A stretch of DNA of 64,000 nucleotides, from NCBI RefSeq assembly GCF_932294415.1, contig NC_065537.1, forward strand, positions 65,858,290-65,922,289. The letters run 5' to 3'. Positions 11,463 to 54,245 of this stretch are shown one piece after another; position 1 is the first letter of the stretch; each line of letters opens with the position of its first letter. The notes under the pieces were generated by a model. It ran no database searches, had not been told where the DNA came from, and was given only the letters and a program-made list of their open reading frames with translations. The stretch is from Quercus robur (taxonomy: Eukaryota; Streptophyta; Magnoliopsida; Fagales; Fagaceae). The position numbers were made by a program, and so were the translations under genes.

Positions 11463-11557
11463 GGCCAAAATGGGCAAATGCCCTTTTTTCGGAAATTAAA
11501 CATCTTTGTGCCCTCATTCTGAAACTAAATAGGGAAATGCCCCTCTTTTGTAACTCG
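11463..11557 (+). repeat. Left terminal inverted repeat of the giant MULE
   Basis: This repeat aligns with the reverse complement of 54151-54245 at about 85 of 95 positions by eye, including GAAACTAAATAGGGAA and CCCCTCTTTTGTAACTCGA. Weaker similarity continues inward through the first AACTCGAT palindromes. Confidence 0.85.
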
Positions 11558-11822
11558 ATTATCCTAAAATCGAGTTATATGAAATACTCGATACTCCAAT
11601 AATCGAGTTATACACAGGTTTTTCCCGCACTGCTGGCATTTTTTTTTTTTGAATCTCTACATAACTCGATTATTTAAAAATCGAGTTAGTTATACTGTTA
11701 TAAACCCTGATTTCGTACTGTCTTTGTGTCAGGTGGAGTGTTTCAATGTAACTCGATTCCTGGAATATCGAGTTATAAAGTATACTTGATATCCGTAAAG
11801 TCGAGTTATTCTCTTATAATTT
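11551..11822 (+). promoter_or_regulatory. Array of AACTCGAT...ATCGAGTT palindromes, left end
   Basis: At least three imperfect palindromes of the form TAACTCGAT-spacer-ATCGAGTTA occur here, plus single half-sites such as ACTCGAT and TCGAGTTA. The array starts inside the terminal repeat and ends about 80 bases before the ATG of the first resident gene. By position it could be both a transposase-recognition region and a promoter element. Function is inferred. Confidence 0.6.
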
Positions 11823-11902
11823 CTGCACACCTTCCGCCACTCAGTGTGCCTTGCTCTCTGCTGAACTGAAGACTTTCTGCTGAACTGAGTTGGAACTCCT
11901 CC

Positions 11903-12839
11903 ATGGATCAACAACGGCTTTCTTCAAACTCAATTGAAATTTGTATCACCTCAGGTAAAAAATTCACATCACAATTTTAGGGCAATGTTATTTTCATTTG
12001 ATATTGTACTAAATTTTGATTTTTTAGGTTGAATGAATGTGAAGTAAGTACATTGGTGTGATTTTGGTTATTTGTTGTAGTAAACGTTGGTGAGAAGAGA
12101 ATGAAATAATTTCTTTACTATAGCAACATTTTGTATTGCACATAATCATCATTGGTCAGACATTTACAACAACATTTAGTGTTGAAGACAATGTGTAGAC
12201 ATTACCAACAATGTCTATTGTTTATGGTCAAATGTTGGTGTTAGTGTTAGTATTTCATTTTTAGCATGCAATAGTACACAATTTTATGAATGTCTTTGTT
12301 GTGTACCATTCTATGCAGGATTACATTATTTAGCAACAGTTGATACACACTGTTAACTTGATCATTTGGTGTTATTGTATTCAGTGTCAATGTCTGGTTC
12401 TGGCAACCCACAACTCTATAGGCCTCATGATGTGTTCACTGCTATGGGTCGTTGTTGGGTATTGGAAGATGAGTTCAGCTATCCAATCAATCCGAATTTG
12501 CGAAATAGTGCTTACGTTCACAATACCATGAGACAGGAGTGGGCTTGGTTATTTCGTGAATAACAAATGTTTTATGATGAGTTGGTTGGTTTTAAGTTGC
12601 CAGTGCCTCGGCGACTCGCATCACAAATGCCCAGAGACAGCATCGACGAACTTCGTAAAGCATTGAACCGCATAAGAGAAGAAAATAATCGAATGAAGAT
12701 ACGTTTTAATCGATATCGGACCCAAGTCGAGATTCGAGAGTCAGTGCAGGAAGGGTGGTACGAGCATGCACAGTTCATGCAATCACTTCTTGCTGATCCC
12801 ATTTATCAGTCAGACGTGGAGATGTCAGATGAAGAGTAA
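11903..12839 (+). pseudogene. MULE small gene A (family shared with genes B and C), interrupted
   Basis: Exon 1 (11903-11954, ATG then 17 codons) ends at CAG|GTAAAA. Exon 2 runs from CAG| at 12385 to the stop at 12837-12839. An in-frame TAA at 12561-12563 splits it into an N-terminal part of about 57 codons from MSGSGNPQLY and a C-terminal part of about 90 codons. The second part has GFKLPVPRRLASQMPRD, then RIREENNRMKIRFNRYR, a likely coiled helix, and an acidic end (DVEMSDEE). Genes B and C of this element share the spaced motif PR-x(n)-ENNxMxxRxxR. No known domain is recognised. It lies directly after the left palindrome array and converges on gene B. Without the stop it would encode about 165 residues. 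Confidence 0.55.
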
Positions 12840-13153: not shown

Positions 13154-13534
13154 TCATTCTGATAGGTAGTCCTCGTAGTTGAGGACATTGTTACGTTCTG
13201 CCGGAGTGAGTTGCCTGTTTGTTGCAACGGCTTGCTCCTCCGCCAATTGTAGCATATGATACCTGGACCTACGAAGTATCATAAGATTGTTCTCTTTTTT
13301 TATTTTCGTCACTGCACGCTCATATTGGTGCATGTTTTGTCGTGGCAGTGTGAGCGAGCTACGCTCGACAAGAGGCGCTCCGATTTGCAGGAGATCATTG
13401 TGCAGAGCGTTGGACTCGTTCACGCGAAAGTCCCACTCTTGTTGCAATCCGGCATAGTATTCCCTCTCGTCAGAATCTCTTTGTGTTCTATAGTTATTTG
13501 GAAAACGAGGTAGCATCCAATTACGCATTGACAT
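13154..13534 (-). CDS. MULE small gene B (PR-x-ENN-M-R family), unknown function
   Basis: This is an open frame of 126 residues. After a short N-terminus (MSMRNWMLPRFPNN) it has QQEWDFRVNES near residues 31-41, matching the QEW of gene A. LPRQNMHQYERAV and IKKENNLMILRRSRYHM follow near residues 62-95, aligning with the same segment in genes A and C. The charge pattern suggests a helical or coiled-coil domain. The frame is intact and could include an unseen upstream exon. It converges on gene A with a 315-base gap. The name is positional; no characterised relative is recognised. Confidence 0.5.
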   Translation of the reverse strand: MSMRNWMLPRFPNNYRTQRDSDEREYYAGLQQEWDFRVNESNALHNDLLQIGAPLVERSSLTLPRQNMHQYERAVTKIKKENNLMILRRSRYHMLQLAEEQAVATNRQLTPAERNNVLNYEDYLSE

Positions 13535-14212
13535 TGGAAAATGTGACTTTAGATCGGTATGTGTAGAAGTTTTGCAAGGGTAGATGTATGTAAATGGGAC
13601 TTCGATATGTGTAGATGTTTTGCAAGGGTAGATGTAAATGGGACTTTATATAGGGGTTTTGCAAGGGCAAGTATTCAGGTGGATGTGAGTATAAGTATTC
13701 ACGTGAATAAAGATGATATGAGTTGACAGTATATTGTTCAGTGGCGTCTGTTGGTGCATGTGATTCGTTGAGGTAGCTGTTTCATATGGCTATAGCTTGT
13801 GCTACAGTAGCGGGCTGGTGATGTGTACTGCAAAAGAGGTTGCGTATTTATTCACGTGAAGACTATTCAACATTGATGTGCTTCATCTGACATGATTTGA
13901 CGAGACAATGTTGAGCTGTGTTAAATGTATCATAAACTTCTCAGGGATGCTATAGGTACATCCTTTAAAAATGCTGCATTGCAAAAGGATGCATAGCTGT
14001 GTATTGACGTGCGTGTAGGTGATATGACTGGATAGGGTTCAACAGTGCAAAGCTATTGAGCAGCACTACGAACATCAATGTAGCAATAGGACCAATAACA
14101 CTCGAAATTGATGCACAAAATTTTCTGCGTTGCTATGTGTATTGACGTGAGTGTGGATGGGTACTTCTGGTCAGGGTTCAACAATACTGAGCTATCCACC
14201 GTAGCTACAGTC

Positions 14213-14980
14213 ATTGCTCCCTATGGTGGAATTTGGCAAGTGTGATTGAAGAAAGCTGATAACAACATTAGGTTTTGTAATGGTTGGCAGGATTTCGCTG
14301 AATACCATTCTATCTGTTATGGTTATTTTTTAGTCTTCAGATATGAAGGAAATTCAAGCTTCCATATTGTTATATTTGATAAGACTGCCATTGAGATTCA
14401 ATATCCACGTAGGAAGAATTGTAAATTGGAAGATCATCAGGTAAAAATATCAAAAACTTAGATGAAGATGATACAAACATTTCTTCCTTAATGTACAAAC
14501 CCATAAAACATGAAGTCAGAGAAAAGTTTGTTCTTAAAAAATTACAGATTATGTCCAGAGGAAGAGAGAGAGAGCAATCCAAGCAGACAAAAAATTGAAG
14601 CCTAAAAATCCTTCTTTCATGGGTATCTCGTGGCCACATAATATGGTGAGCCTTTATACATAATGTGATTATGATGTTCTCTTAAATATGGCTTGGAAAC
14701 ATATATGGGAAGCAAGTATATTATTGGGAAGCAATTTGTCACACATCAATGTCTTGTGCTATTACCCTCCATCAAAACATATTAAGCAATGAGATTCGGG
14801 GAAGGCTGGGTTGCATTTTCGAAAGACAATAATTTAGAAAAATGAGATGTCACTGCCAATGAGGTGATCGAAAGGACTCCTGTTGTGATTAGTGTCTCAA
14901 TATTTCACTTGGTTGACCATCAGAGTTTGGACAAGGATAACCTATTTAAAATTGAAACTAGTGATGTTTATGCTTATATT
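14213..14980 (+). pseudogene. Decayed two-domain B3 (REM-like) gene
   Basis: Reading the plus strand from about 14222 gives GGIWQV, then an in-frame TGA, then KKADNNIRFCNGWQDFAE...YFLVFRYEGNSSFHI, the C-terminal two thirds of a B3 domain. Around 14590-14640 KPKNPSFMGISWPHNM resembles the start of a second B3 domain. Around 14800-14930 GWVAFSKDNNLEK, an in-frame stop and VISVSIFHLVD match its end. The order matches the intact B3 gene at 23830-25681, which has the same YEGNS-F segment. It is a paralogue with at least two in-frame stops and probably lost exons, so it is not functional. Confidence 0.7.
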
Positions 14981-16510: not shown

Positions 16511-17125
16511 TTAACAACAACGTCTAATGTTCGTAGGTAGAAATTTTTGGAAATCATCATTGCTTGAATCTGAGAAGTCTGAAATATCTGTTTCATCATC
16601 TAACGCAGTAATTTCATTAATAGACTTCATGGCTCGCTCTTGCGCCTTCCCCTTTAGATGCTTCCTAGCTTTTTGGATTGCGTGAAAACGGTCTAGTCGC
16701 CTTTGCATTTGATTGTTCTCTTGTTCAAGACGAGCAAGTATGTTGGCAGGTTCATCTCTAGGTAACTCGGCAGAGCGTGCCTTAGGAACTCGTAACCCGT
16801 GCCATCGACAATACACCTCTAACTCACACCTCTTCTCGTATAGGGTTGACCATGGTGGTTCTGCTATAGTGAACTCTATTGCGGTGGTATCTGTACTTAG
16901 TTTTGTAGGTTTGCCGACCATGATGTGTCCGACGCTTCCAAGACTCTCATACGTGTATATTGGCATATTAACGAAATCTCTCTTCTTTCCAACCCATTTT
17001 CCTCCATAGTGGTCTGTGTATGTATGTAGTTGTTGATCTGTTGGAACTTGTGATGATGCATTTGTTGAAGTAGGTCCAAACTTGTTTCGCATTGTACAAT
17101 TTGATGTTGAGGCATTGCGACTCAT
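16511..17125 (-). CDS. MULE small gene C (PR-x-ENN-M-R family), unknown function
   Basis: This is an open frame of 204 residues. The N-terminal 80 residues (…HYGGKWVGKKRDFVNMP…) have no recognised domain. Residues about 92-150 (PPWSTLYEKRCELEVYC, then GLRVPKARSAELPRDEP and RLEQENNQMQRRLDRF) align with genes A and B. The C-terminus is acidic and serine-rich (DDETDISDFSDSSNDD), which could be a transactivation or interaction tail. The frame is intact. Unlike gene A it has no AACTCGAT array directly upstream; its upstream region carries the degenerate 170-200-bp repeat instead. Confidence 0.5.
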   Translation of the reverse strand: MSRNASTSNCTMRNKFGPTSTNASSQVPTDQQLHTYTDHYGGKWVGKKRDFVNMPIYTYESLGSVGHIMVGKPTKLSTDTTAIEFTIAEPPWSTLYEKRCELEVYCRWHGLRVPKARSAELPRDEPANILARLEQENNQMQRRLDRFHAIQKARKHLKGKAQERAMKSINEITALDDETDISDFSDSSNDDFQKFLPTNIRRCC

Positions 17126-17534
17126 AGCTTAATTAATCTACGAAGTTAGCGGGGTAGAAAGTTAACATTATATCACTGGTGCATTTATAACCTCATTTCA
17201 CGGTCCAGGCATTACAATTTCACTTATTAGGGCCTGTCATGTCAAACCCTTCAGGAAAAACACTATATGAACAGGATTTTAAATGTTCCTAATGTCACAT
17301 CAAAGGTGGGCAGTAGTTGCAACAGTAGATGTAAATGAGACATCTGTGCATCCAATTTCACAATTCTGTATTCACGTGAGTGTGGGTGTGAAACAGTGTC
17401 GACCTGGGTATCCACATCGTGTAGAGCACCGAACATGACTTGACTAAGCAGCAGCGTCTGTTGGCACATGTGCTGCGATTGAAGGAGTTTGATATGACTA
17501 CAGTTGGTGCTACAGAAGCAGGCTGGTGACGTGT

Positions 17535-19106: not shown

Positions 19107-20240
19107 TCAAGAGTCAGATGGTGTAGAAGGTGGAACAGGACGTCTATAGTGAGCTAAGTCCGCTCGCATAGCTCCAACCTCGGCAAGAAGACCATGTAGA
19201 AGCTGACCATGGGCTGCCTGAGTCGTCATAATGGTCTCCATCATAGCATGAAGAGAGGGAGGAAGAGGGCATGTATGCGCTGCATCAACAGTGTCAACAT
19301 CTATCTCATCATCACCATCCTCGGCAACAACAGATGTGGGATCCCCATGCATGTCCTCATCTTGAACATCTCCAGTAGTAGACCGTACTCGTGGTCTGTT
19401 GGATGGACCAACACTGAGGTCGACAACCTTCTTTTGGGCAGTTCGCTGTTTCAGAAATTTGGCTCCTATAGGGGCTTGGATGTGAACCAACTCGTGGGAA
19501 GGAAAGTTCTTTAATCCTAAATATTTGAGGACCCTATGGATGAGAACTGGGAAAAACAAAGCATGCCTCTTATACTTGCTCCTACGCACCTTGACAATGG
19601 TTTCGATGAAAAGGGAAGGAAAACAAATGGAACTATTGGTGACAAGGGCGTAAAGCAAGATACACCTGTCTACAGGGATTGTATGGATATGAGAGATAGG
19701 GAAAATGTTGTGACAAGCTATCCTAAAGAAGATATAATTAAGCTCAGTCAACTCACTTGAGCTAATACTTCGGCCAGAATTCCGATTGTTTGATCGTCCA
19801 CAAAGAACATCCATAACATCATCAATACGAGGAGACATAGAGTTTGGATAAGTAGGTGTACAAATTATAGGTACATCAAGGGCTTTAGATACGTGCTCCC
19901 TAGTTATTGTAAACGGTACACAACGTATGGACGATGCCACCTTGTGACCACCAAGATCCTCATGCACCGATAGATTCGAATAGAATTCTCTAATCAAGTC
20001 AGCTGGAGGGGGTTGTATGTTTGTACATAGGGACAGCCAATGCCTAGACTGTAGATTCTCACGAACAAAAGGATGCAGTTCCTGTAAATTGATTTGCCTT
20101 TCTCCCCAAATACGCCTACGCTTAATCAATGTTTCAAAGGTTTGCTCATTTTCTGGCGTGAGGAACCTTAATTGATCAAACACCACTTCAGGTTCGGATG
20201 CAGCTTTGCATTTTCCCCTCTTAGTCCTCTTCGGACCCAT
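19107..20240 (-). CDS. 'Putative plant transposon protein' family gene carried by the MULE
   Basis: This is an intronless open frame of 377 residues with a basic start (MGPKRTKRGKCK). Residues about 75-245 hold the family core, with DLIREFYSNLSVHEDLGG, FTITREHVSKALDVP and a hydrophobic block around FFRIACHNIFPISHIHTIP. The C-terminus is acidic, then helical (SLHAMMETIMTTQAAHGQLL). The gene inside the nested Copia element shares the same order: IREFYSN, a V-D/E-HV-ALGL/DVP segment, a basic N-terminus and an acidic then helical tail. The family is widespread in plant transposons and has no established activity. An AACTCGAT array lies about 800 bases upstream. The frame is intact. Confidence 0.65.
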   Translation of the reverse strand: MGPKRTKRGKCKAASEPEVVFDQLRFLTPENEQTFETLIKRRRIWGERQINLQELHPFVRENLQSRHWLSLCTNIQPPPADLIREFYSNLSVHEDLGGHKVASSIRCVPFTITREHVSKALDVPIICTPTYPNSMSPRIDDVMDVLCGRSNNRNSGRSISSSELTELNYIFFRIACHNIFPISHIHTIPVDRCILLYALVTNSSICFPSLFIETIVKVRRSKYKRHALFFPVLIHRVLKYLGLKNFPSHELVHIQAPIGAKFLKQRTAQKKVVDLSVGPSNRPRVRSTTGDVQDEDMHGDPTSVVAEDGDDEIDVDTVDAAHTCPLPPSLHAMMETIMTTQAAHGQLLHGLLAEVGAMRADLAHYRRPVPPSTPSDS

Positions 20241-21036
20241 AACTAATCGATGGTCAGTAGTGCAAACACGATCAGCTCACACAAAAACAGAACGAAAATG
20301 AAGTTTGAAGCAGAGAACAAAAATTGAAGAGTAACCAGCTACCATGTGTAGAAAATCATGCACACAATATACTGTCTAGAGCAGTTTACAACAACACAAT
20401 GAAAACCAAATATTCTTATTCACGGGTTGTTTAGTTGGTGCAATAATTGTAATGCATTTTGGTCCGAGTCAATAATTTGAAGTTAGAGACCTAGAGTATA
20501 TAACAGAAGTCTTATCATATAGGAAACATACAAGTGGATTTAGGAACTGACATATATCATACCATCGTAGCTACATGTAGTAAGTTTCACCAGCTTCTAC
20601 AAAAAACAGAAAATAAATTGCACAATGTACAGTTCAGACATACAACCAGCATATATCTATACCACACACATATGGAGCCACTGGCAAGTTCATTTTGTGG
20701 AAGGAAGACAACCTATGACATAGGCAACCTTACTAACAACAATGCATTTGACTAGGCAAACACCCAATTTCATCACAATCTTCATAGACATAGACATAGA
20801 AGTGTGAAGCATGAAAATGCAAAATTTGAGAATAATGCACCAACAATGTGTAATTTCAAAGACAGCAACCGTTAAAAGAGTCTTACTATGTAAAATCCTC
20901 GACGAATTTGCGCGGGAAATTGTGGGTTCTAGCCGGATGAAGCGAGAGCAATCGAAGATGTAATTTCGGACAGCTGCAAGTTCTGCAGAACTGGGGAAGA
21001 GTTAATAAAAATGGGTAATAGATTGTAATGTCCATA
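20241..21036. other. Upstream region of the plant-transposon-protein gene
   Basis: No coding signal is seen. It separates the gene start from the palindrome array and probably contains its promoter and leader. Confidence 0.5.
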
Positions 21037-21633
21037 TAACTCGATTTTATGGAAATCGAGTTACATGCAATCAAATTTTCAGCACAAGGGCTTGCACATA
21101 AATCGACTGTCCGTAAATCGAGTTATGTGTAGCACAAATAACAAGAATCCAGTTAATGGTGGAACGGCTATCCCATAACTCGATGTTACAGAGAACGAGT
21201 TAATTTCAAATAACTCGATTATACATAACTCGAGTTATTTTTCTGGGCCCCCAGATATTTGGACTGGTCCAGATGCAGTCCAAGACGAATCGAAGTTTAA
21301 AGGTAGGCCTGCCACAATACTCGATTCTACTTGAATCGAGTTCTGTAAGATGCTTACACTCACAAGAATTCAAATTCCTCGAGATTTGGGAAATCGAGTT
21401 ACGTTGTACACATGCACCCACCCAGCCCATATATTTGGACTGGTCCAGATGCAGTCCAAGAGGAATCCAACTGTATATGGCTACCTCGCACAAAACCGAA
21501 CTCCGGTAAAATCGAGTTATTTGCAGTAGAATATCTCAAGAATGCAATTTCTGTGTGTAATGGCTTGCATATAAATGGATACATCATAAAGCGAGTTATT
21601 TGCAAAGTTACTCAATCACGTAGAACTTGAGTT
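21037..21633 (+). promoter_or_regulatory. Internal array of AACTCGAT...ATCGAGTT palindromes
   Basis: It contains about six or seven palindromes or half-sites, among them TAACTCGATTTTATGGAAATCGAGTT-type pairs near 21037, 21100, 21215 and 21320. It also has two copies of the text ATTTGGACTGGTCCAGATGCAGTCC (near 21255 and 21430), which contains the near-palindrome GGACTGGTCC. The same companion text occurs in the 25.8-27.0 kb array. Located upstream of the minus-strand gene at 19107-20240. Confidence 0.6.
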
Positions 21634-21639
21634 ATTTTC

Positions 21640-22544
21640 ACTGGTCTCCCTTAATCTTCCTGTTAGGTGTAATCATTTCTCAACATTAATTGACAATAAC
21701 AAGTACTCTTCTAAGTTGTTCCAAAAATCATGCGGAGCCTTTTTATTTAATATTTTTTATTTACTTCTTTTTTAGTGGTATGATTCTCAATAAAATGTAA
21801 GTTTCACAGTTTTCATGAAAATTTCAGCAAGAAAATGGATTTAGAAATAATCCAGACTCATGATTCCTTATGACAATGATAGAATTACTTGCATTTCTAC
21901 CGTGTGGATGACCCACTTTCATAAGCAGTTAATGGCAGCAATTATGGTAGGAGTCTGACAGATGTTGTTTGCAGGTTTGTTTAGTTCAAAGATGATGTTT
22001 TTCTATAAATGGCGGTGTTTTGAATGCTTCTGTGTATCCTAAATCTCTCTCCTTTTTTATTTTCCCCTTATATTCATCCTTGCCTTTGCAACGCTACTGT
22101 TCTTTTGAAGGACTACTGCAACAAAAAAAAAAAAAAATATCATCCATTTTGTGTAGATTTGATTTCAATATAATTTAATTATCTTATCCAGAAGCATGAG
22201 TATGGTCTCGAATTTTAATGTTGAAGACAAGGAGGAAAATCCCCCTTTTCTTAGAAACAGAGAGACAAGGAGGAGAATCCCCTCCATAGTCCCCTCATTC
22301 AATAAAACAGTACATCTTTTAGTCCTTGCAGTTTACAAGAAGTTCCAACTTCATTTATAACATTTGAAAAATTGCTACCAAGTGAAATTTTGAAAATTTA
22401 GCTATCAAGCATTTCAATTTGCCACATTATATTGATTGACACAATTGATGGATTAACTTCTCACTTATTTTTTAAACATCTAAATTTGCAAACATCAAAA
22501 ATAATGACTAAAAATTATTGCACATGGTGTTATTTATTTTTTTT
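21640..22544. other. Non-coding MULE interior
   Basis: Ordinary AT-rich sequence with small A runs. Nothing is recognised. Confidence 0.5.
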
Positions 22545-23408
22545 GTTTTTTTGTTTTTTTGAAAACGCCTCAAAACTTTCATTCATTAAAATTGAAGGGA
22601 GTCAACATACAATGCCTCCAAGGCTGGTGGAGGAGAATCCTCTAACCAAACTACATCATCAACAATATTTTTTGCATAACGTGCTAAGGAGTGTGCTACA
22701 CCATTTGCATTTCTATTTACCAGCTTGACTTCTACCCACAGTAAACCAACCATCAAACATTGAATAATAGCTCCTACAACAGAACACTTGAGGTCATGGA
22801 AAATGGCTGCATCAAAGTTCAGTTTAAACCTTGAATTCGGTGGAGGACACCATCTGCTCACTGTGCTGGTTCTGCTGACTGTTAGCTGTTCTTGTGCTTG
22901 TCGAAACTCTGTGAGAAGATCAAATGCTCTTTTGTTCAGTTGGGTTGGTGACTGAAGCTTGCCTCCATGTGAAATCCTGTTTCGTTGGGACCATAAGAGC
23001 CAGGCCTGGACTAAAAATAGCTCCAGTTCTTCCCTGGTCAGCCGGCCTTGCATCTCTTCAAATAATTGCATTGAGTCTTGTTGACCTCCAGCACATTTTT
23101 GGAGCTTCACAAGGCTGATAGCCCACACATCCCTCGCCACCCCACACTCCCATAAGGCGTGAATCACTGTTTCTGAAGTACTCTTGCAGAGTTCACATGT
23201 GTCATCATCTATAATTCGTCTATGGACTAAATTATCTCTGGTAGGAAGAATGTTTTGGCATACCCTCCATCCAAAAACCTTGATTTTATTTGGGACCTTG
23301 AGCTTCCATAGCATTGCCCAGACTTTAGAACCACTCACCCCTCTTGAACTTTCTGTCCAATCCGCCCCCCTAAGAACCTGTGTTGCCACATAGTAACCTG
23401 ATTTCACA
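22545..23408 (-). mobile_element. 5'-truncated LINE (L1-type) fragment with RNase H
   Basis: The minus strand encodes the C-terminal end of a plant L1 ORF2. A reverse-transcriptase-associated zinc-binding segment (KVPNKIKVFGWRVCQNILPT…CELCKSTSETVIHALWEC) is followed by an RNase H-like segment (FKLNFDAAIF…RNANGVAHSLARYAK). The RNase H part is internally shortened: the central Leu-Ala-Glu-Ala stretch of the family is missing. A T-rich run at 22540-22566 on the plus strand is the poly(A) tail of the minus-strand element. No target duplication was found. Confidence 0.8.
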
Positions 23409-23829
23409 GAATACAAAACATACAATATATACAATATATTGTATTAAAGTGTTACAATATATACAAAACATACAACAATGTCATCTGAAAAGAACAAAAT
23501 CCTATAGCAATAACAATGTTGACCCCCCTAAAATAAAATCCAAGAGTCGCCATTCAATGTAATATAATTGATTGACATGCAAAAAAGGCCAAAATCCAAA
23601 CAAAAGCGCAGAAAAAAATACAGCATCACATTCATTTTAAAATACATATGAAAGTTCATCATATTAATTAAAAATTTCCCAAGAGTGAAACTCTAAACAT
23701 CACAAAAGTACCCAATCAATAAAGTTGCAAACTGGGATGAACAAAATAGGGATGAATAGTAAAGTTGCAAAGTAAACACACTCTAAACATCACATAATAT
23801 TATCATCACTTTGCATCCACCCTAACCAC
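23409..23829. other. Short non-coding gap with a small AT-rich repeat
   Basis: ATACAAAACATACAA occurs twice near 23411 and 23461. The rest is the 3' flank of the B3 gene. Confidence 0.5.
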
Positions 23830-28094: not shown

Positions 28095-28096
28095 AT

Positions 28097-40347: not shown

Positions 40348-40445
40348 TAGCCCCATTTCCACTACAAAAGCTCACTTCACACGTTAGAAGGTGCAACCAC
40401 ATTCTAGTGCAAAGAGTTCCCACCATTGCGTTTTTGTAGAGCAGG

Positions 40446-42451: not shown

Positions 42452-43853
42452 CTGTATGCCCAACAAAAGTATGTGTACATTTGCTTCCTCTCCAAAGTTT
42501 TAAAGTTCTATCACTTGAACCTAAAATCGTGGTAGCATAAATATGAACCCCATAAGAATAGGCTCTGCCTGTAACACAGCACCTCCTCCTCTATCCCAAG
42601 AATAGGTGGAGGTTGACATCATAAATTCAAGACCCAAAGGATCTAGGCGCACCTATAACTTAACAAGCGGAAAATTAAATTTTAACCTTCCATTCGTCAG
42701 GGAAGGGGCTTGTGGGAGCACCAAAAAAATTGTGTTATATTGCAATAATTTAGTGAACTCATATAACCGGTCATTTGTAAGGCATGTCCAACCCATAACA
42801 TCATTCTCCTAATTAAAGTCTTACAGGTCTATACATTTTATACCCAATTGCGTTTAATTTTAACTATACCTTCTCTCAAGTAAAACGTTCTCTTAAATTG
42901 TAATTTGCAGTTGCATGTACACTAGTTAACAAATAGAGAAAACCAACCATGTAGTAACTACATGTGTACATTCACCATACTACTCAATGTATTAGAAAAA
43001 AAATAAATAAAGCACATTTTTGTTATGGTGGACAAAAAACCCATCAAATATGTTGAACCTGGGAAGTATCGAGTTTGTATGGTCATCATATAAAGAATCT
43101 CACAGAGGGGTTCCCCCCTCTGTGACTAACACCACGGAACTCATGAAAGTAAAATACAATTTAACAGTTCATTTATTGCACTGAATACAATAATATATTT
43201 GAAAAGCTCTTATTTAATATGTTGCAATAAATTCTGAACAGAGTTCCTACTTTTATGGGAACATGCTAATGTTGATATGATTATTGGGTCAAACTGTAAG
43301 CTAGACTTCTATGTGTCCTGTGATCAATTAAGGTGACCTACAGGTCAATATCAACTCAAATGCAATAGAGTCCAGGAAATATTTAATTAAAAAAAAAAAA
43401 AAAAAAACCACCCAAAATCAACATACTCCGACCTTTGGATCTAAGAAATCCTTACTTTGAAAAGTAGATGATTTGAAATCATCCCAGCAGCACCTGAGAT
43501 AGCAATATTAATTAATTTCTTCTAGGTTTTTGTCTCTTCTTCCTGGGGCCTCATATTAAAAAGATTTGTTAGCCGTAGTCATTTTAGATTAAACAATGGA
43601 AGAAAAGATCTACTGATGAGCCCCATAAGTTCATAGTGAAAGACATAGTTGGATCTATGCATTCCAATCTGATGTAACCAGTTCCAACTACCAACAAAAT
43701 CTAAAACAATATCTAGCAGAACAGTCATCTACTGTGTGCACAATTATACCTGTAACAAGCTCGCCTGAAGGCAGCTTTATGACTGCTTGGATTGCTGCCT
43801 TGTGAGCCTCCCAGGATTCTGAAGGTTGGCCACTTCTCCAACGTCTTAATGTG
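42452..43853 (-). pseudogene. Captured exons of a PLAA/DOA1-like WD40 gene
   Basis: Two consecutive exons keep GT-AG borders and phase. The first, 43750-43853, gives TLRRWRSGQPSESWEAHK and AAIQAVIKLPSGELVTG. The second, 42452-42520, gives GSSDRTLKLWRGSKCTHTF and VGHT. This is WD-repeat text characteristic of the phospholipase-A2-activating-protein/DOA1 family, ubiquitin-binding CDC48 cofactors. The intron between them is kept, so the piece was copied from genomic DNA and not from mRNA. The rest of the gene is absent. Confidence 0.78.
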
Positions 43854-43869
43854 CTGTGGTGAAGGAGAC

Positions 43870-45153: not shown

Positions 45154-48100
45154 TTAATGAGCTTTTCGTTTCCGCCCATATGCCCTGACAGGTCTAATCT
45201 TACCTGTTTCATCAGACACAACAGCATAATTAAATTAACATAATCAACTTTCATAAGCAGTACAAGTAGCTCAAGAAGATGGGAAGTGTAGACGAAGTAC
45301 ATACCATCACCGGTCCCGCAATCGGGAGCATGCGCACGCGGGCGTCGCGATCTCCGCAGAGCCTCCACCGGCTCAATGTCCTCAGCCGGTATCTGCTCAA
45401 TCTGTACAGCCTCTCCGTGGGCGGATTGAGATGGAGCTGACATGGTGGGGTCCACATGCACTAGAGGTGGGGTGGGCATGCCTGGTGTGGGGACAAATAT
45501 GCATCCACCATCATGGGCAGATCCACTGAAAACTGGGGGCGACATATGAGGAGGGCCCTCAAAGTCCGTGCTAGCACCATGGGATGTAGTGTGGGCTGGA
45601 ACAGTGCCCTGATGATCGACGCTATGGGATGGCCCAGCACCATCGCCAGGCGTGCATCGCGGTGCCCTGCCGTCGTCATCAGACAGTACCCAATCAGTGC
45701 CAAGCCATGCCTCTTCTACACCCTCCTCATTCCCTTCCTCGTAGATGGGAGCCAACTCGGTCGTACGGCTGCGACCAGCTTGACCACCTCCACGATGTCC
45801 ACCCCCACGAGACCCACCACGTTGCCCGCCACGAACTGGGGCGTGTGTATCAATGTCAACTGCTTCTGCAAGTGCATTCGCCAATTTAAGTCGGCCTAGC
45901 TCCTCCACAAGCTCTAGTGTAAATGTAAGGTCAGTGTGCATGTCAGAACCTTCATCGCACCTCTGTATAGACCTAATCATCGTCCGAACCTACAAAACAA
46001 GGGCGTCATAAAAGCAAGAACGCAAGTATGATGCAAAACTTGGATAAATCTGTTCCAAAATCAAAAGAAAAAGTAGCAAACATAGCTAATGAAATTCTTA
46101 TATTACTTATAATTATGAAGCATCTTTAAAAAAACAGTGTATAAAAATAGGGGTTGGCCCCCCCTGTGCAAAAATTTATAGTTCCAACCCAACACTCAGG
46201 AATTTTCAGTTTCCTGTTATGTTTATCGCTATGCAATCTAAACATTGAGTTGCACATGCTTCAAACACGTATAGTTGGTTGTACATAAGTTCAATCTTAG
46301 CATAAGTGAAAATATCAGAATTTCACTTCTGTATCTAGGCTTCACCAGATTTACAACTCCATTAATATCACATTGCAATCAGGACACATATTTCGAAGTT
46401 ATTATTTCCTAACGTACACGCCCAAATCAAATGAATTGAAAATATCAAACGCAAGCTTCAAGTTTCAATTAAGGGAAGTACCAAAAACTTAGAACATATA
46501 TCATACTTGAATCTAGTATAAATGCACATCTCCTTGCTGCATACTTGCAAGATTTTAAATGACCTTTAAGCTGTTGGGAATTGCATTCTACCAACAGTTT
46601 AGTAAGGGACTTCCCAATCGTAGAGGTAATATCTATCAAGGAATATGTAATACATTAATCAGTCCTGGAGGAAAGGCTATCTAAACTATCATGAAATGTG
46701 AATTCATCACTACTACACAGAGTTACACCGTCCATTTTAAAGTACAAGCCAACCAAAAACAAAAAAAAAATAAACAAAAAATAAAATAAAATACAATAAA
46801 ACCCAACCCAACCTACCCTTTTATAAAGTTGAATGTAATTATATGAACAAAGGTGTGGTCATCATTAGTCATTGCCCATTAACCATTCCTCATGCAAACA
46901 AATTGGATCAAGACAAATTCAGTTTATTATGAACAACTTAAATCATGCAGTATTTTGACTTTAAAACATAATGACATGTCATGCAGTATTTTTTGACTTT
47001 AAAACAAAATGACAGAGAAACTTATAGAGATGTAACAACGATAATTATTGTGGACTTTTGCATGCATGATAAAGCTGCTGAGGATATTTAATCCAACAAT
47101 GGTTTCATCCATAAAATAGGAATTGTTGCCTCACCGTGAGTTCCCAATACGCAGACTCTGGTGTTATGTACCGCCTTGTGTGGCGATTGTACCACATCAT
47201 GTACTCAACGAGATACGTATCATCATCGTCTAGGAGATCGGACCCGCGAACTACATTCACTCGGTTGGCCCATTGCCGAATAAAGGGATCATGTTCTACC
47301 TCCCAGTTCTTCTCCCATTTACCCTGAAGGGATATCTTGTGAAGGGTAGTCGACGTATCCACGACACTTGGAACTGGTTGCTTCATCCCAAACTGACGGA
47401 GGACTCGCTCAGGATGATGCCACTCCACTATCCAAAAGAATATCAACGGCACCTCGGCCCTCCAAATATGCTGCCCAGCAGTGCAATACGCAGGTAGGGA
47501 GCCTAGCGTATGCGTGTACGGCTCCCATACAATCTGCATAAGTAGATTATGTTTGTGATAGTGAGACATCATACTAATTTAACATTATGTTTGTGATATG
47601 TAATATGCAAAGCATGGAATTTCTTGCTTCTAGTCGTACACAAAATCTTCAGGGATTATTGGGCAGAAACTAAAAGAACAACAAAATTGACCTGCAAAAA
47701 ATATTAAAAGATCTAGGTTGTTCATGTCCACCATTTTCAGCCCCATGTTCATATGCTGGACAGGGTTCAAAGCTAACTGAAACCATCAAATACTAGGGTT
47801 TTCAATCTGAACCAAACTTAGAGGAGGGTACTAGAGCATCCTTATGGCTGTAAGATGAATCCAAGTTGATGATTTCGCAAAATCTTTTTATCGTAATAGA
47901 AATATTGTGCTACATTAATTGCATTAGTCATTAACAATGTTTCAATGAATGAGAACAAAATGACTATTATAAGGTCTACTGAAGACATTGCATTTCAAGT
48001 ACCACTTTATATTGCAAGAAATGGAAGCTATGTAAATTATTACATGGTATAATCCTCATCAAATACTGTTATTATATTTCTATGTAAATATATAATTCTT

Positions 48101-51100
48101 ATAAATTTTAGTGTTGGAAATTACGTAAGCCTTTTAGTTATCTCAAACTAATCATGTCAATGTCTAAAATTACATTCCTCTTGAAGAATATGGTGAGCAG
48201 CATATTTTGCACGCTTCTAAAATTATATGAATAAAGTACTCGTTAATAATCCATAGCTTTTAATAATTTTAGGACTATTAACGCAGCTAAAGTGGGGACA
48301 ACTTAAGGAGTTGTATGCTGCAATTAAATTGTGCTCTCCAACTTTGGTGCAAGGAGCACGAACTAACTTTTCATTTAGGTCAACAACAAGAGGTAATGTG
48401 TCAAGCGTCTTTATGTTTTCTCATATATCACTGATTAACAATTATTTGTTTCTTTAAACTTAGGCCATTGTTTTCCAAGAAGACAATCGAGGCTGTGCAT
48501 ATTCAAAATATACCACTTGAATACATAAATCGAAGTCAAACAGTATTCTACTAGACTGTAAAAATATAACCTTCAATTCAGCAAAGGTAATTTATAACGT
48601 ACAATGTAACAATGTTTTTTGCATCACAATAACAATGTTTGTAATCCTGGATACCCCTATGTTAGAAGAAGAAATACTAAATTGTCTACTTATTAGGCAG
48701 AGCAATAACTATGGTTTTAAGCTCATAACATTTTATTAATTAATTACAAGTGATTTCACAAGCTTAATTACAAACCGTACAAGCTTAAATTTTATTTGTT
48801 TAATCAAATTTGTAGCATATATTGAGACTATATGCAAAAACAACCGACTAAAGTAGAGCGTGATAGTAATCTGGTGCAATTGTACATATGAAACTTCTAG
48901 CCAAGAGAGTTCGATCGTACCTATGAAACTTATATCTATGCCCAAATGGAGCTCACACACTAAAACCACCTGCAGCACCAGTGGCGAACATCAATTGTAA
49001 AGAGCTTAGATTCACATTGACTACCTATGAAAACACCATCAACTAGAACATCCCAAACGGATGTTTAGATAACATAAAAGTTTATATTAACCTTAGATGG
49101 TCACTTAATACTAAATATTGCTATGTTCTGTCACAGGGGTAGTGAAATGCATAAACTCCAAACATTAGTAAGTTTTTGAAGGCAAAGCAACAATTGAGAC
49201 TATCTTCGGTGCTCACTCTGGCATCCTAAACAACCCCAAATCTCACAAAGGGTTTAACCTATACCCTGGACTCTCGAGTTCCTAGTGGGGGGGCACTAAT
49301 GGCTTTGTATTTTGGAAATTTCACAGTGTGGACCCAAGCAATGACAACCATCCAGCATTGGACAAGGACAAGCTATGGCAATGGCTTAGCCTATGGTCAC
49401 TCTATGACATTCAAGGCAGAGTAACTCCATCCTTTAGTTTGCTTAATTTCAAATTTCAATGAAAGCAAGAGAAGTGATCATGTGTTTTACGGGCCAATGA
49501 TCAATAATGTCATCATTCCCTCTGTTTCTGTACTTAGGCCAAAAATGCAAATTGGGGTTATATTTTTGCTCTCATGTCATGATTACACAATAAGTAGATA
49601 AAATTTTTGTAGTTTAACATTTGCAGCTTTCCCAACGTTCTAAATTTAAAGAATTTTATCATTTTATGAGATTTAACAGCCAACTATATTACAACAGTGA
49701 AGAGAAGCTCTAACTCAGCAAATTTAATTCAACGAAAATCTGGAATATAATTGTGGTAATATCTAAGTCAACCACCAAAACTATAGCGAATCCAGAAGGT
49801 GTGAAATATTAATAAGCTTCAACAGTTCTAAAAAAAATTTCTATTTTAAAGCTTTAATATTGATATTGAAGTATAACAACTATCAAAGATTCAAACTCTC
49901 TCTAAAAGAATTATGAGCACAAGTCTGGGCTAACCTGTTAAGCAAGACTCCAAAACGCATGTAAAGAAGCAGAAAGTGCAAAAACAACGAAGAAGACAGT
50001 GAAGCAGAATTCACGCAAGGATTAGGGAAAGAAAAAAATTTGGACCATTTCTCGATTTATGCGTGTCATCCTTGCGCAGGGGCCATGCGTTTTGAAAATA
50101 TCATTTGTATTCTAATATGCCTTGATTCCCTTGTTCTGAAAAGACCCATATTTGTCAAGTTTATAGTACGAAATTTGTTGTTTAGAATTTAATTGATATC
50201 TTCTGCGTTTACAATCATTCGCCTTATATAAAGTCTCAAGAAATATTGTTTTGAAATTTTTTAGTTCATTTTCATAGCTGCTGACTGTCAGTTTTGGCAC
50301 AGAAATCTGGGCATTAAGGTAATGCATTAAAAATGTTTTTGCTGTTTTCCCCAAATTTAGAACATATTTTTTCAGGCATGTTGGCTCCAATTAATTTGAG
50401 TCAGTGAGTGTATAACGATTATGATAAGTTAGTATCGTTAGCTTAATGCTGTCTGCTTTGTAGTGTTGATGTTATCAGGAAAAGTCCAATTTGTTAAGTG
50501 AGCTTTTTTAGTATAGTGAAGTCTTATTGCTTTGTATATACATTAGGTTGCTAGAAATTGGTGTAGTGGTGAGGGTTTCTACATACTGGGTTATCTTGAC
50601 TAACAAAAAAAGAAATTTTATTTTCATCATAACACTGATTCCTTAGTTCTTTTTGAAGATGGATAATAGAAATGGTAGAAATAATAATAATAATCCCTCC
50701 CAAAAAGGAAATATAATTTGATTTGTTAAATAGTCACTTCTAATTTGACTGTTTATGCAAAGTCATTAGGCATTTTACTTAAATATTTAAGTGGTGGCTA
50801 ACCCCATGCCCACTGAAGAGACCATAGCCTAGCCATGGAAAATAGTTTGAGCTCCTGGCATGCCCTGGTGTGAATATGTCATCACAGGCAGTGCCCATTT
50901 TTTAAGTAGCTTTAAAACCCAATATGATGTGTTTTTCTTCTTTTGTCACTTCCTAATTGACACTTTTCTTGCCGATTGCACGAATTGGCAAACAAGGGCA
51001 GAATTTCAGTTACAGGAGCATCAAAGCTGTTGGCAAACATTCTGTACTCTTACCGTGGAATGGGTCTGTCTGTTGGGACCATGATTGCTGGATGGGATGA

Positions 51101-53373
51101 GACGGTAAAGACATATGACTGTATCATGTCATGTTTTCACATCATCTTTTAATCAGACTCTTGTAATTTGTATTTTCTATATGGTTGTAGGGTTCTATTT
51201 TCTCATGTTAAATAGGTTGAAACGGTGTATAATGACATAATCAAAAAATGAACACAAACTTTTGATTCAGTTAGTAGCTGGAAAGAATTTAAAGATGTCA
51301 TCGTCAGTTTCGAAGATGCATCATTAAAATCAAATGAATTACTTGAGCACACAAATACAACCAAAGACAAATCTGATTATCTTCGGTATACTATTAGGTA
51401 AATTCATTTCTCATTGAATTATAACCAATTACATAATCCAATATGTGCGTCTTCTCTTCATTGCATCAGCTTAATGACATTTGTAACAATTGGTAGAGTT
51501 TTTGTTTTTTGGTTGCAACACAAGTTTGAACTCACTGTCTTGCACTAAACCAAGACTTCATGCTCAATCTTTTGCGCATGTTGCACATGCTTCAAACATC
51601 TTGGAAAAGGGACAATTTATTCTGTGTTTTTTTTTTTTTTTTCGGTGTAAATCACAAACGTTTCCGTACATAATGAAGAATATAGCCAAATTCTACTTTA
51701 TATATATATGACTAAATTTATATATAACCCATTGATTTAACCCAACTTAACCTGAGTCATGTGAGTTGGGTTGCATTGGAAAAAACCCTTCAATCCAACC
51801 CAATTTGGAAAAAACCCTTTGATTTAACATTCAAGAATTTTTTACTTTTGTTTTACTTTATGTAAGGACGAGCAAGTATTCATGCAGGTGCTACAAATGG
51901 AAGTTCTAATGTGAAGTACTTCACGATGGACATTCCAATTGAGTTAAATGATGGGATGGAAATCCAAGTATCAAACAAAATGATTGGATGGTATTATGAA
52001 ATCAACTCATTCCTACAACAATCCAAGAATTCAAAATAAAATAAAAATTGAGGGAAACGAAAATAAAAGCATGTGCGGTGCATTTGAGGGAAACGTGCTC
52101 GGCCCGTAGTCATAAGAATTGAGGGAAACGTGGTCATAAGAATTCAAACTAAATTAACCGAATACCTGCTCGGCCCGTACTGTAGCCAGTGACGCCCGGT
52201 ACGCAGCAAGGACGTGTGTGGCATGCTCTGCGGTGCATTTTGGCCCGCTCCACCTACCAAACATGAGGTGTCGACAAATGCTCATTACTGAACCTTACAT
52301 TTAACAAACTTTGCTTTTATATTTCACATCCATATACTAAGCATTGATAAGTTTCTTTCGTTTGTTAGTTTGGCATATTTTTAATTATATGAAAGAGACA
52401 AATAACGAGAACTCAATAATGGCAAGGGGCCCTGAGTGCACTGGCGGTAGAGGCGGCCTCACAACAGGGCATAATTGTGGGAACCTTGAATAGGCCCATA
52501 GCTGCACCAACAAGAGTGCTCCTCCAATCTGCATCGCATCCTTCTTCGATGCACCACAAAGTTGCCTATACAGCCAGGCCAATGCTGCACTACCCCAGCT
52601 ATACCGTCTCGCATTGCTGACTGGGTTGAGCAACTGTAGAGGCAGCAGTGAGACCCGGTCCGCAGACCTGTCCATGAACAAGAGGGCCCCCATCCGTACA
52701 AGTAGGTGGTAGCGGGCATGTTGCTGCAAGACTTCGTCAGCAGCGTCCACAACTAAGGGATCGGCAAACTGTGCATCAAGCCAGGTGTATCTTATCCTCG
52801 CCCCAGCAAGGGTAGACTTGTTTGAGTTTGGTATCGGGGGTGGAGGTTTATGGCCCAACAACTGTTCGCACAGCTCACTCCATTTGTAGTCTGTCTTCCC
52901 AGTGACAGGCAACCCATCCACCGGAAGCCCCAGCATCACCTCCATATCTTGCAAGGTGATACCCATTTCTCCATGGGGTAAGTGGAACGTGTGCGTCTCC
53001 GGACGCCACCGCTCAACCAACGCCGTGATCAAGGCGTGGTCGACCTCCATATCAGGAACCTTGAATAAACCAATCAACCCTGCTGCATCTATGTGTTGCA
53101 TGATACGTGGATCTAACCCACCCTGTGGCAATACACATTTACGGCGTCGAACCTTTATCATGCCAGGCGCCTCCTGCACACGGACGAGTATTGTGTTAGG
53201 AGATTAAACACGAGGTAATTATAAAACAAACATGTATTAATAATACTACTACATACCTCGTCAGCGGCGCACCTCCAAAGTGGACTTGACCGATGATTCG
53301 GCTGCTGGGCCAACTGGGTATCCACATCGGGTCCAGGCCGCACTCTATCAATGTATGGTTGCATATCTGACAT
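45154..53373 (-). CDS. Plant mobile domain (MAIN/MAIL-like) protein gene of the MULE
   Basis: Six exons are inferred: 53257-53373, about 52420-53173, 52166-52253, 47135-47533, 45305-45989 and 45154-45203. All junctions join in phase except the exon 2 donor, which is not clear. The product is about 690 residues. The PMD domain spans exons 2-4: [87 protein letters not shown]. The tail has an RGG-rich stretch, [16 protein letters not shown] and a basic end (GRKRKAH). PMD proteins of hosts (MAIN, MAIL1) act in the nucleus in silencing and genome stability; transposon copies are common but uncharacterised. The 4.6-kb intron 4 positions hold captured host fragments. A palindrome array lies about 640 bases upstream. 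Confidence 0.78.
46000..47100. other. Intron of the plant-mobile-domain gene
   Basis: Intron between exons 4 and 5. AT-rich with no recognised inserts. Confidence 0.55.
47974..48586 (+). pseudogene. Captured exons of a GH35 beta-galactosidase
   Basis: Plus-strand exons at 47974-48046 ([24 protein letters not shown]), about 48107-48191 (ending YIPLEEYG), 48273-48392 ([30 protein letters not shown]) and 48464-48586 ([12 protein letters not shown]…[16 protein letters not shown]) follow the order of plant BGAL proteins. GT-AG borders are kept. The second exon is badly worn and the fourth contains an in-frame stop. It lies antisense within an intron of the PMD gene. Only a short middle part of the enzyme is represented and no activity is possible. 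Confidence 0.8.
48600..50029. other. Intron sequence of the plant-mobile-domain gene
   Basis: No further captured gene was recognised with confidence. The G+C-richer piece at 49180-49440 may be a fragment of unknown origin. Confidence 0.4.
50030..50088 (-). pseudogene. 3' half of a U6 snRNA gene
   Basis: On the minus strand the text from 50088 reads GCATGGCCCCTGCGCAAGG, then ATGACACGCATAAATCGAG, then AAATGGTCCAAATTT and a T run. This equals the last ~55 bases of plant U6 snRNA, ending in its Pol III terminator-like T tract. The 5' half, including the ACAGAGA box, and the U6 promoter are missing, so it cannot give a working snRNA. It sits in an intron of the PMD gene, in the same orientation. 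Confidence 0.85.
50970..51104 (+). pseudogene. Captured exon of 20S proteasome subunit beta-5
   Basis: The plus strand encodes [19 protein letters not shown], then [19 protein letters not shown] and IAGWDET, nearly identical to plant PBE1-type beta-5 subunits. It is followed by a donor-like GTAAAG. The 5' border lacks an AG, so the piece is probably clipped. It is antisense within the PMD gene intron. The near-perfect protein match implies recent capture or slow decay. Confidence 0.85.
51105..52165. other. Intron sequence of the plant-mobile-domain gene
   Basis: AT-rich, with a T run near 51630. Near 51770 a short text, AACCCAACCCAATTTGG-like, repeats. Nothing else is recognised. Confidence 0.45.
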
Positions 53374-54014
53374 GGCAGCAAATACATTGTTAGCAATTTT
53401 CTAACAAGTAAACCACATTTAATATAAAATAAAAGCATAGATTTAGTAAGACATTATATTTTGAGCACAAGATTTTTAACATCACTTCTTAAATAAATAA
53501 GAACTTGCCATAAAAAAAATTATTTCAGAACTATTTAAATCACTTCTTAAAGCTTCGGATAATTATTAATTAACTATTTATGAAAATATAAGTTATAACA
53601 CCACTCGATTTGCCAAAACCCCTCATCAAAACCCCAAGCACATTTAAACTCATTAATGAGAAAATCATCATTGCAGCATATAAAAGACAACAAAATTCTC
53701 ATCTTCATTAGTAAATTTACTACTTCCTTAAGTTTCAACAAAATAATCAAAATCCCACACAAAACGCAACCTAACATTAACCAACATCAGAAAATATTTC
53801 AGAGGGAGAGGACCGTACCTGTAATCAGCGGCGGCGGGAACCAACGACGACTGATGGAGACTCGAGGAAGAGTGGGGAAGCCTGATCGCAGAGCAAGAGA
53901 GACAGAGTGTGGAGAGAGAGTGATGGCAGAGAGCGAGGGAAAGAGAGTGTACAGGGAGAGCGAGTGACTGAATAGCGTTGTGAGACGTTAGGGTCCTATT
54001 GATTCAAATCGCTG

Positions 54015-54150
54015 AAAATAACTTGATTTCCAGTTTCCCGAGTTATGACCGTCTACACAAACATTTTTTTATTGGGAGAAATTCGAAGGGTCAGACTAAC
54101 TCGACTATACAAATATCGAGTTATTCATTAAAACTCGATTTCTCTATTTT
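54015..54150 (-). promoter_or_regulatory. Palindrome array, right end
   Basis: Palindromes AACTTGATTTCCAGTTTCCCGAGTT, AACTCGACTATACAAATATCGAGTT and AACTCGATTTCTC…TTTTCGAGTT run into the right terminal repeat. The array is upstream of the minus-strand PMD gene, mirroring the left end. Confidence 0.62.
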
Positions 54151-54245
54151 CGAGTTACAAAAGAGGGGCAATTCCCTATTTAGTTTCAGAAAGAGGGCAA
54201 ACGAATGTTTAATTTCCCAAAAAAGGGTATTTGCCCATTTTCTCC
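54151..54245 (-). repeat. Right terminal inverted repeat of the giant MULE
   Basis: This is the reverse complement partner of 11463-11557, about 89% alike by eye. TCTGAATTT at 54246-54254 is the right target duplication. Confidence 0.85.

What the first reader, a model, noticed from the sequence alone, without database searches (positions are those of the whole stretch)
11463..54245. A ~42.8-kb, gene-rich Mutator-like element with matching ends and 9-bp target duplication
The terminal repeats (about 95 bp, about 89% alike by eye) and the 9-bp flanks TTTGAATTT/TCTGAATTT bracket a transposase, a PMD gene, a B3 gene, a plant-transposon-protein gene, an RNase H1-like gene and a three-member small-gene family. 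MULEs of this size and gene load are rare or undescribed to my knowledge. It resembles a giant cargo transposon more than a standard MuDR.
Basis: partly seen in the sequence, partly recalled or inferred. Interest (0 to 1): 0.92.

Follow-up and report, generated by a model that had tools for sequence, protein, structure and literature searches.

The report
Giant gene-rich jumping element in oak
This stretch of oak DNA is one copy of a very large "jumping gene" element, usually about 32,000 bases long, that carries its own cutting enzyme plus at least seven other genes and appears to have spread recently to dozens of places in the same genome.

Summary
The finding holds. Of the 40 best matches to each end in it, 38 pair on the same strand, 10.6-42.8 kb apart, median 31.9 kb. 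Thirty-seven of 38 have a 9- or 10-bp target duplication at exactly these ends; mispaired flanks reach 8/9 in 1 of 1,406. Two copies lie beside an uninterrupted relative of their own target. Five copies read in full are 99.6-99.9% identical over ~31.8 kb, each with one 881-codon MULE transposase frame. The window copy is 42.8 kb because of later inserts, mainly an 8.2-kb copia element; its transposase frame is broken. A sister family (transposase 70-72% identical) keeps T32 downstream in 11 of 11 and PMD upstream in 4 of 11. A 9-base motif lies upstream of 8 of 9 genes and in none of the coding DNA examined. I read this as an autonomous giant MULE with a conserved gene set and perhaps its own regulatory motif. 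My searches listed no paper on such a MULE.

The parts
11454..11462 (.). left target duplication TTTGAATTT
   Evidence: 8/9 match to the right one; family-wide TSD test
11463..11610 (+). left terminal inverted repeat, begins GGCCAAAATGGG
   Evidence: homology with other copies starts here (give or take chance-matching bases) with different flanks
11552..11774 (.). motif cluster AACTCGATT / AATCGAGTT, subterminal, upstream of small gene 1
12360..12839 (+). small coiled-coil-like gene 1 (cc1); one stop in the window copy, open 160-codon frame in the five copies
   Evidence: 97-bit match to the C-terminus of a Rhododendron MULE protein
13154..13645 (-). small gene 2 (cc2)
14186..14617 (+). second, smaller B3-like stretch (B3b), perhaps a gene fragment
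   Evidence: PF02362 E 2e-5, below the curated cut-off
16511..17128 (-). small gene 3 (cc3)
19107..20276 (-). T32 gene (PF20167 Transposase_32, 'putative plant transposon protein')
   Evidence: E 7.6e-24; in 36 of 38 paired copies
21038..21518 (.). motif cluster upstream of T32
22539..23436 (-). insert seen only in the window copy among six read in full: zf-RVT retroelement piece
23839..25735 (-). B3a gene, two-B3-domain (VRN1-like) protein in several exons
   Evidence: exons taken from matches to Quercus suber models P0024, P0105
25789..26980 (.). motif cluster with 154-bp tandem repeats upstream of B3a; the array resumes at 35201-35396 after the copia insert
26981..35200 (+). nested copia LTR retrotransposon (LTRs 26981-28094 and 34087-35200, 99.7%), with gag and its own T32-domain frame at 32070-33251
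   Evidence: absent from five copies
36236..38879 (-). MULE transposase gene (DBD_Tnp_Mut, MULE, SWIM); frame broken in the window copy, one 881-codon frame in the five copies
40229..40346 (.). motif cluster between the divergent transposase and RNase H1-like genes
40440..40883 (+). gene with an RNase H1 N-terminal (Cauli_VI) domain
   Evidence: E 2.7e-15
42557..43615 (.). insert seen only in the window copy among six; splits a weak WD40-like remnant (42312-42556 and 43616-43870, -)
45303..53203 (-). PMD (plant mobile domain) gene, exons ~53203-52388, 52255-52160, 47578-47108, 45989-45303
   Evidence: full-length Q. robur protein P0121, PF10536 E 4e-80
54097..54245 (-). right terminal inverted repeat, ends CCCATTTTCTCC
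54246..54254 (.). right target duplication TCTGAATTT

Best explanation
This is one copy of a giant autonomous Mutator-like element (MULE), inferred host Quercus robur, ~32 kb in its usual form. Shown by sequence: the element is bounded by ~145-bp terminal inverted repeats, inserts with a 9-10-bp target duplication, encodes a MULE transposase that is unbroken in all five copies read in full, and in those copies spans PMD, B3, T32, RNase H1-like and three related small genes. Inferred: the transposase binds the two ends, cuts the element out or copies it, and joins it to staggered breaks 9-10 bp apart. The other genes are element genes that help it, not passengers. The motif AACTCGATT/AATCGAGTT, found in both ends and upstream of 8 of 9 genes, may be the shared binding site through which an element protein (B3a is my first guess, a cc protein or the transposase next) switches on or un-silences the element's genes together, as VANC proteins do for Arabidopsis VANDAL elements. 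Copies in which no transposase was found (10.6-42.2 kb) keep both ends and target duplications and were perhaps moved in trans.
For: 38 left-right pairs from the 40 best hits of each end, median 31.9 kb. TSD in 37 of 38: 28 at 10 bp (25 exact, 3 at 9/10), 9 at 9 bp (7 exact, 2 at 8/9, one of them the window); 1 of 1,406 mispaired controls reaches 8/9 at either of two offsets, 0 at the fixed offset. Homology with other copies begins at the claimed end with unrelated flanks. A paralogous empty site next to a 35.7-kb copy (84% across the junction, one target) and a weaker one for a 20.6-kb copy (77%, gap at the junction). Five full copies collinear, 99.62-99.95% identical. Transposase found in 31 of 38, all 31 antisense to the element's orientation; 23 of 31 without a stop in residues 161-843, of which 2 have stops in the N-terminal piece, so 21 of 31 without a stop in either piece. 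PMD in 35 of 38, T32 in 36 of 38. Candidate DDE residues are in place in the 881-codon frame (motif assignment recalled). Sister family, transposase 70-72%: T32 3.5-5.0 kb downstream on the same strand in 11 of 11 (chance ~0.002 per locus), PMD 19-20 kb upstream in 4 of 11. Fifteen protein models (12 Q. suber, 1 Q. lobata, 2 Lithocarpus) join two or three neighbouring genes in the order PMD, transposase, B3a, T32. Motif: 36 sites in copy E2, 0 in 9,018 coding bp, 35 within 1.5 kb upstream of a gene; circular shifts mean 11.4, P 0.005.
Against: No transposition has been seen; recent movement is inferred from near-identity of copies. The window copy itself has a broken transposase frame, and its own empty allele was not available. 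One of 38 copies (C39:16080171) has no TSD. For 7 of the 11 sister-family loci no PMD was found (62 PMD places compared), and their ends were not read. dN/dS against one other copy is below 1 for six of the seven gene segments with a defined ratio, but PMD exon 1 gives 1.87 on 7 changes. Melon joins transposase and PMD in the other order. No expression, methylation or binding data bear on the motif; the 1.5-kb limit and the gene starts were fixed after the clusters were seen, cc3 has no motif upstream, and one of the 41 window sites lies in a window-only insert. B3a, RNase H1-like and the small genes were followed only in the copies read in full and in protein models, not in all 38.
Confidence: 0.93

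Rival explanations
1. The two ends belong to separate short MULEs that happen to flank unrelated DNA.
For: A region near one other copy (L006) holds short TIR-like stretches.
Against: 38 pairs, five of them read in full with the same interior, and TSDs at 37; self-comparison of the window shows no other partner for the outer part of either end.
Confidence: 0.01
2. A large repeat spread by segmental duplication or assembly artefact, not by transposition.
For: Copies are up to 99.95% identical over 31.8 kb.
Against: Homology stops at the TIR ends, flanks differ, and 37 of 38 sites have their own 9-10-bp duplication; paralogous empty sites.
Confidence: 0.02
3. An ordinary MULE that picked up host gene pieces as passengers (Pack-MULE-like), with size an accident of captures.
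For: A weak WD40-like remnant is present; MULEs are known to capture gene fragments (passages); PMD exon 1 shows no sign of constraint in the one comparison made.
Against: T32 follows the transposase in 11 of 11 sister-family loci and PMD precedes it in 4; 15 models from Q. suber, Q. lobata and Lithocarpus repeat the order.
Confidence: 0.12
4. The AACTCGATT clusters are transposase-binding or replication sites, or repeat expansion without function, rather than a regulatory site of an element protein.
For: Clusters lie in both TIRs; part of the excess comes from 154-bp tandem repeats.
Against: Clusters also lie upstream of internal genes and none of 36 is in the coding DNA examined; tandem arrays of a short motif in noncoding DNA are what VANC targets look like (passages).
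Confidence: 0.4

Closest known systems
MuDR/Mutator-like elements (MULEs) of plants
   Same: MULE-domain transposase with MuDR DNA-binding and SWIM domains; long TIRs; 8-11-bp TSD (criterion seen in passages of PMC3903597)
   Different: ~32 kb with eight clear genes plus a second B3 stretch; autonomous plant MULEs are a few kb to perhaps 20 kb (recalled), and Pack-MULEs of one survey did not exceed 7 kb (PMC6431247 passage)
MULEs carrying PMD genes (rice, grasses, Amborella)
   Same: PMD with a MULE transposase; use of PMD in anti-silencing has been suggested (PMC5418596 passages)
   Different: There PMD-C is described as fused to the transposase; here PMD is a separate spliced gene some 12-14 kb away in the same element, with B3, T32, RNase H1-like and small genes
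VANDAL elements of Arabidopsis with VANC anti-silencing proteins
   Same: Short 9-bp motif in dense, partly tandem arrays in noncoding DNA near element genes (PMC5735166 passages)
   Different: A review places Ulp1-carrying Vandals among non-TIR MULEs (PMC13317346 passages); here TIRs are present, no Ulp1 domain was found in the frames scanned, and no binder has been shown
Giant DNA transposons of other groups (KDZ/EnSpm/Sola-1 of Ectocarpus; Starships and Teratorn, recalled)
   Same: Tens of kb with accessory genes (Ectocarpus passage, PMC12477816)
   Different: Other transposase or recombinase superfamilies

Membership tests
Mutator-like elements (MULEs) | MULE-type transposase | tested here: met
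   PF10551 E 2.6e-19, PF03108, PF04434; 881-codon frame in five copies
Mutator-like elements (MULEs) | long terminal inverted repeats | tested here: met
   ~145 bp, 85%; same outer 8 bases at each end in 38 of 38 paired copies
Mutator-like elements (MULEs) | 8-11-bp target site duplication | tested here: met
   37 of 38
Mutator-like elements (MULEs) | transposase acts on these ends | not testable with these tools
   needs a binding or excision assay
Pack-MULE | non-autonomous, carries gene fragments, no transposase | tested here: not met
   transposase found in 31 of 38; the other 7 could be non-autonomous derivatives
VANDAL (non-TIR MULE) | no long TIRs | tested here: not met
VANDAL (non-TIR MULE) | Ulp1/VANC-type genes | tested here: inconclusive
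   no such Pfam domain in the 30 proteins scanned, but not every exon was scanned
VANDAL (works like) | element protein binds a short motif and un-silences the element | not testable with these tools
   only the motif's placement was tested
Starship-type giant cargo element | tyrosine-recombinase captain gene (recalled) | tested here: inconclusive
   no such domain in the proteins scanned; a MULE transposase and TSDs were found instead

The most novel reading that the evidence does not exclude
Plants have a lineage of giant (~32 kb) MULEs with a conserved multigene set and an element-wide regulon: an element-encoded DNA-binding protein reads AACTCGATT clusters in both ends and at nearly every gene to switch on or un-silence the whole element, which lets a DNA transposon far above the usual size keep moving. 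The order PMD, transposase, T32 predates the split of two oak families, and transposase models joined to PMD (melon) or to a cc1 relative (Rhododendron) hint at an older, wider group.
Probability: 0.35. Interest if true: 0.93.

Novelty: new variant of a known kind. Interest (0 to 1): 0.86.

Why it matters
One review states that DNA transposition loses efficiency above about 6 kb of cargo (PMC6431247 passage). Dozens of ~32-kb MULE copies with clean target duplications, five of them shown to be nearly identical with an unbroken transposase, suggest that this limit does not hold here. The recurring extra genes offer a way to ask what PMD, B3, T32 and small coiled-coil-like proteins do for a transposon, and the motif gives a direct test of coordinated anti-silencing outside Arabidopsis. 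It is also practical: some oak protein records are chimeras of these neighbouring genes under host-like names.

Tried and rejected
Distant homology of T32 and PMD was tried by profile comparison and not supported (hhalign probability 0.3%). Whether another MULE family (P0073, 71 loci) lies beside a T32 of the P0294 clade (124 loci) was tested: 0 co-located within 60 kb. A scan of viral contigs with the transposase found nothing. An empty allele of the window copy could not be sought: no second haplotype. dN/dS from one pair of copies has too few changes to be strong; the third PMD exon block gave no usable frame there. Only 40 of 1,674 and 40 of 1,048 first-look candidates were scored for the two ends, so 38 is a lower bound and says nothing about more divergent copies; likewise 54 of 1,747 (transposase), 64 of 1,885 (PMD), 109 of 6,659 (T32) and 59 of 2,459 (P0127), so a missing hit is not proof of a missing gene. 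Rows entered by hand from these outputs: 54 transposase places (the 52 other rows are N-terminal pieces), 45 of 67 PMD rows (first exon only), 108 of 112 T32 rows (second pieces dropped). In one search I entered only 6 of 149 P0127 rows, picked by eye; one search repeated the comparison with 62 places and gave the same 4 of 11. One PMD (C4:9686889, 87%) lies on the wrong side of a sister-family transposase, 22.9 kb off. The flank-joining script removed 10 bases for every copy; for the 20.6-kb copy, whose duplication is 9 bp, redid it with 9: the match still spans the junction, with an 8-base gap there.

Full report
What was checked. The inverted repeats 11467-11610 and 54097-54241 match at 85% over 146 columns (120-nt ungapped arms at 85%); the best local match of the outer parts is 92.5% over ~92 bp. 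The outer bases differ between the ends in a fixed way (GGCCAAAA at the left, TTTTCTCC at the right) in 38 of 38 paired copies. The window's flanks match 8 of 9. Pfam confirms a MULE transposase with MuDR DNA-binding and SWIM domains, PMD, B3, Transposase_32 and an RNase H1 N-terminal domain. The three small genes are related to one another.

Which genome. I therefore call it Q. robur; this is an inference from lengths.

Other copies. The left 238 bp gave 40 scored matches of 1,674 candidates, all full length, 93-100% identical; the right 238 bp gave 40 of 1,048, 94-100%. Paired by strand and distance, 38 pairs result; two left and two right ends stay single. Spans run from 10.6 to 42.8 kb, median 31.9 kb; the window copy is the longest. 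Flanks were in hand for all 38. A target duplication is present at 37: 28 of 10 bp (25 exact, 3 at 9/10) and 9 of 9 bp (7 exact, 2 at 8/9, one of them the window copy). Of 1,406 mispaired left-right flanks, one reaches 8/9 at either of two offsets and none at the fixed offset. The copy C39:16080171 has none. This rules out two unrelated short MULEs and segmental duplication as the general explanation.

Empty sites. Two copies lie in repeated host DNA whose other copy is uninterrupted. The 35.7-kb copy at C37:30257673 sits in a repeat whose neighbouring unit aligns across the junction at 84%, with one target. The 20.6-kb copy at C5:41269528 has an inverted repeat that aligns across the junction at 77% but with an 8-base gap at it, so it is weaker. 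The window's own empty allele was not available.

Interior. Five copies were read in full (L039-L058). They are collinear with the window and differ from one another by 17 to 120 substitutions in ~31.8 kb, 99.62-99.95% identical. The one large stretch the window lacks is ~0.9 kb near 22.3 kb; it has five inserts the others lack, chiefly a copia element at 26981-35200 whose LTRs are 99.7% alike. In all five copies the transposase is one 881-codon frame; in the window it is split between two frames. By an own-genome search, 31 of 38 pairs carry the transposase, always antisense to the element. Twenty-three of the 31 have no stop in residues 161-843; two of these have stops in the N-terminal piece, leaving 21 (that tool reads through stops, so its frame lengths alone prove nothing). 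PMD exon 1 is in 35 of 38, T32 in 36 of 38. The seven pairs without a transposase hit (10.6-42.2 kb) all have target duplications; they may have been moved in trans, though a missing hit in a capped search is not proof of absence.

Conservation beyond the family. Among 332 proteins returned by three searches, 15 models (12 Q. suber, one Q. lobata, two Lithocarpus) join two or three neighbouring genes of this element in the order PMD, transposase, B3a, T32. I take them for annotation chimeras, some under host-like names, and for evidence of the order in other species. A melon model joins transposase and PMD in the other order; two Rhododendron models join transposase and a cc1 relative (97 bits). 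In the own genome the transposase search also found 11 loci at 70-72% identity, a sister family; five of the 11 main stretches have one or more stops. All 11 have a T32 gene (57-59% identical) 3.5-5.0 kb downstream on the same strand; chance is about 0.002 per locus. Four of 11 have a PMD gene 19-20 kb upstream on the same strand (62 PMD places compared). Of 12 further relics or unpaired copies at 80-98%, nine have T32 downstream. Against this, another MULE family (P0073) showed no T32 of a different clade nearby. So the order PMD, transposase, T32 is older than the present burst.

The motif. AAYTCGAKW occurs 41 times in the window against 4.3 expected from shuffles, and all 41 lie inside the element, one of them in a window-only insert. 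In copy E2, AACTCGA(T/G)(A/T) has 36 sites in seven groups: both ends, upstream of cc2/B3b, of T32 and of B3a (with 154-bp tandem repeats), between the transposase and the RNase H1-like gene, and one site in a PMD intron. None is in 9,018 coding bp (10.2 expected); 35 of 36 are within 1.5 kb upstream of a gene start, 8 of 9 genes are served (cc3 is not), and circular shifts give P 0.005 and 0.016. The distance limit was chosen after seeing the clusters, gene starts are frame starts, and one of the nine 'genes' is the B3b stretch, so these P values are indicative only. The pattern resembles VANC target arrays in VANDAL elements (PMC5735166, passages), and that is why I infer a shared regulator. 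Nothing here shows which protein binds.

Selection. Window against E2: dN/dS 0.17 (cc1), 0.09 (cc2), 0.28 (cc3), 0.50 (T32), 0.32 (transposase), 0.29 (RNase H1-like), but 1.87 for PMD exon 1 on seven changes, undefined for PMD exon 2, and no frame for the third PMD block. This hints at constraint and no more.

Against the literature. Library searches for giant or large MULEs, PMD with MULE, B3 with MULE and oak with MULE listed no title or abstract start about a ~30-kb plant MULE; the library is open-access only and I read no paper whole. Passages seen: PMD fused to MULE transposases in grasses and Amborella (PMC5418596); Pack-MULEs up to 7 kb and falling efficiency above 6 kb (PMC6431247); giant KDZ, EnSpm and Sola-1 elements in Ectocarpus (PMC12477816); a gene-capture review in which the word 'giant' does not occur (PMC13317346); the TSD criterion for coding MULEs (PMC3903597). 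Of PMC9168764 I saw the abstract and outline; a term search in PMC6446971 gave no passage.

Verdict. A real and, by the near-identity of its copies, recently mobile giant MULE family with a recurring gene set. Membership in MULEs is tested and met except for a biochemical assay; that it works like VANDAL in its regulation is a hypothesis at about one in three. The class is known; the size and gene set are not described, as far as these searches reach.

Noticed in passing
32070-33251 and 19107-20276: The nested copia element carries its own T32 (PF20167) frame, so the same domain family is in a retrotransposon and in the MULE; T32-like first-look candidates number over 6,500 in this genome.
   Followed up: partly
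22223-23436; L040:1607-2371: The window has a zf-RVT piece at 22539-23436, while the five other copies have ~0.9 kb with an RNase H (RVT_3) frame nearby that the window lacks; perhaps different remains of one old retroelement insert.
   Followed up: partly
42312-43870: Weak WD40-like remnant on the minus strand, cut by a ~1.06-kb insert in the window copy; possibly a captured host gene piece.
   Followed up: partly
family-wide ends: Target duplications are mostly 10 bp rather than the 9 bp usual for MULEs (recalled), and the third and fourth bases of the two ends differ in the same way in 38 of 38 copies.
   Followed up: partly
G000: Another MULE family (P0073 relatives, 71 loci scored) is abundant in the same genome, many loci without stops in the matched stretches.
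   Followed up: no
55384-62947: Right flank is retrotransposon DNA with a 794-bp direct duplication at 97.7% (55442/56229), tandem repeats at 58.9-59.6 kb, and RT, RNase H and integrase frames.
   Followed up: no
3665-4432: MADS-box (SRF-TF) frame in the left flank.
   Followed up: no
L006:1886-2400: Short TIR-like stretches (84-85% to the left end) lie next to another copy, maybe a small non-autonomous relative.
   Followed up: no
protein databases: Q. suber records named b3 domain-containing transcription factor vrn1, abc transporter c family member 10 or 60s ribosomal protein l18a-like match several neighbouring genes of this transposon.
   Followed up: yes
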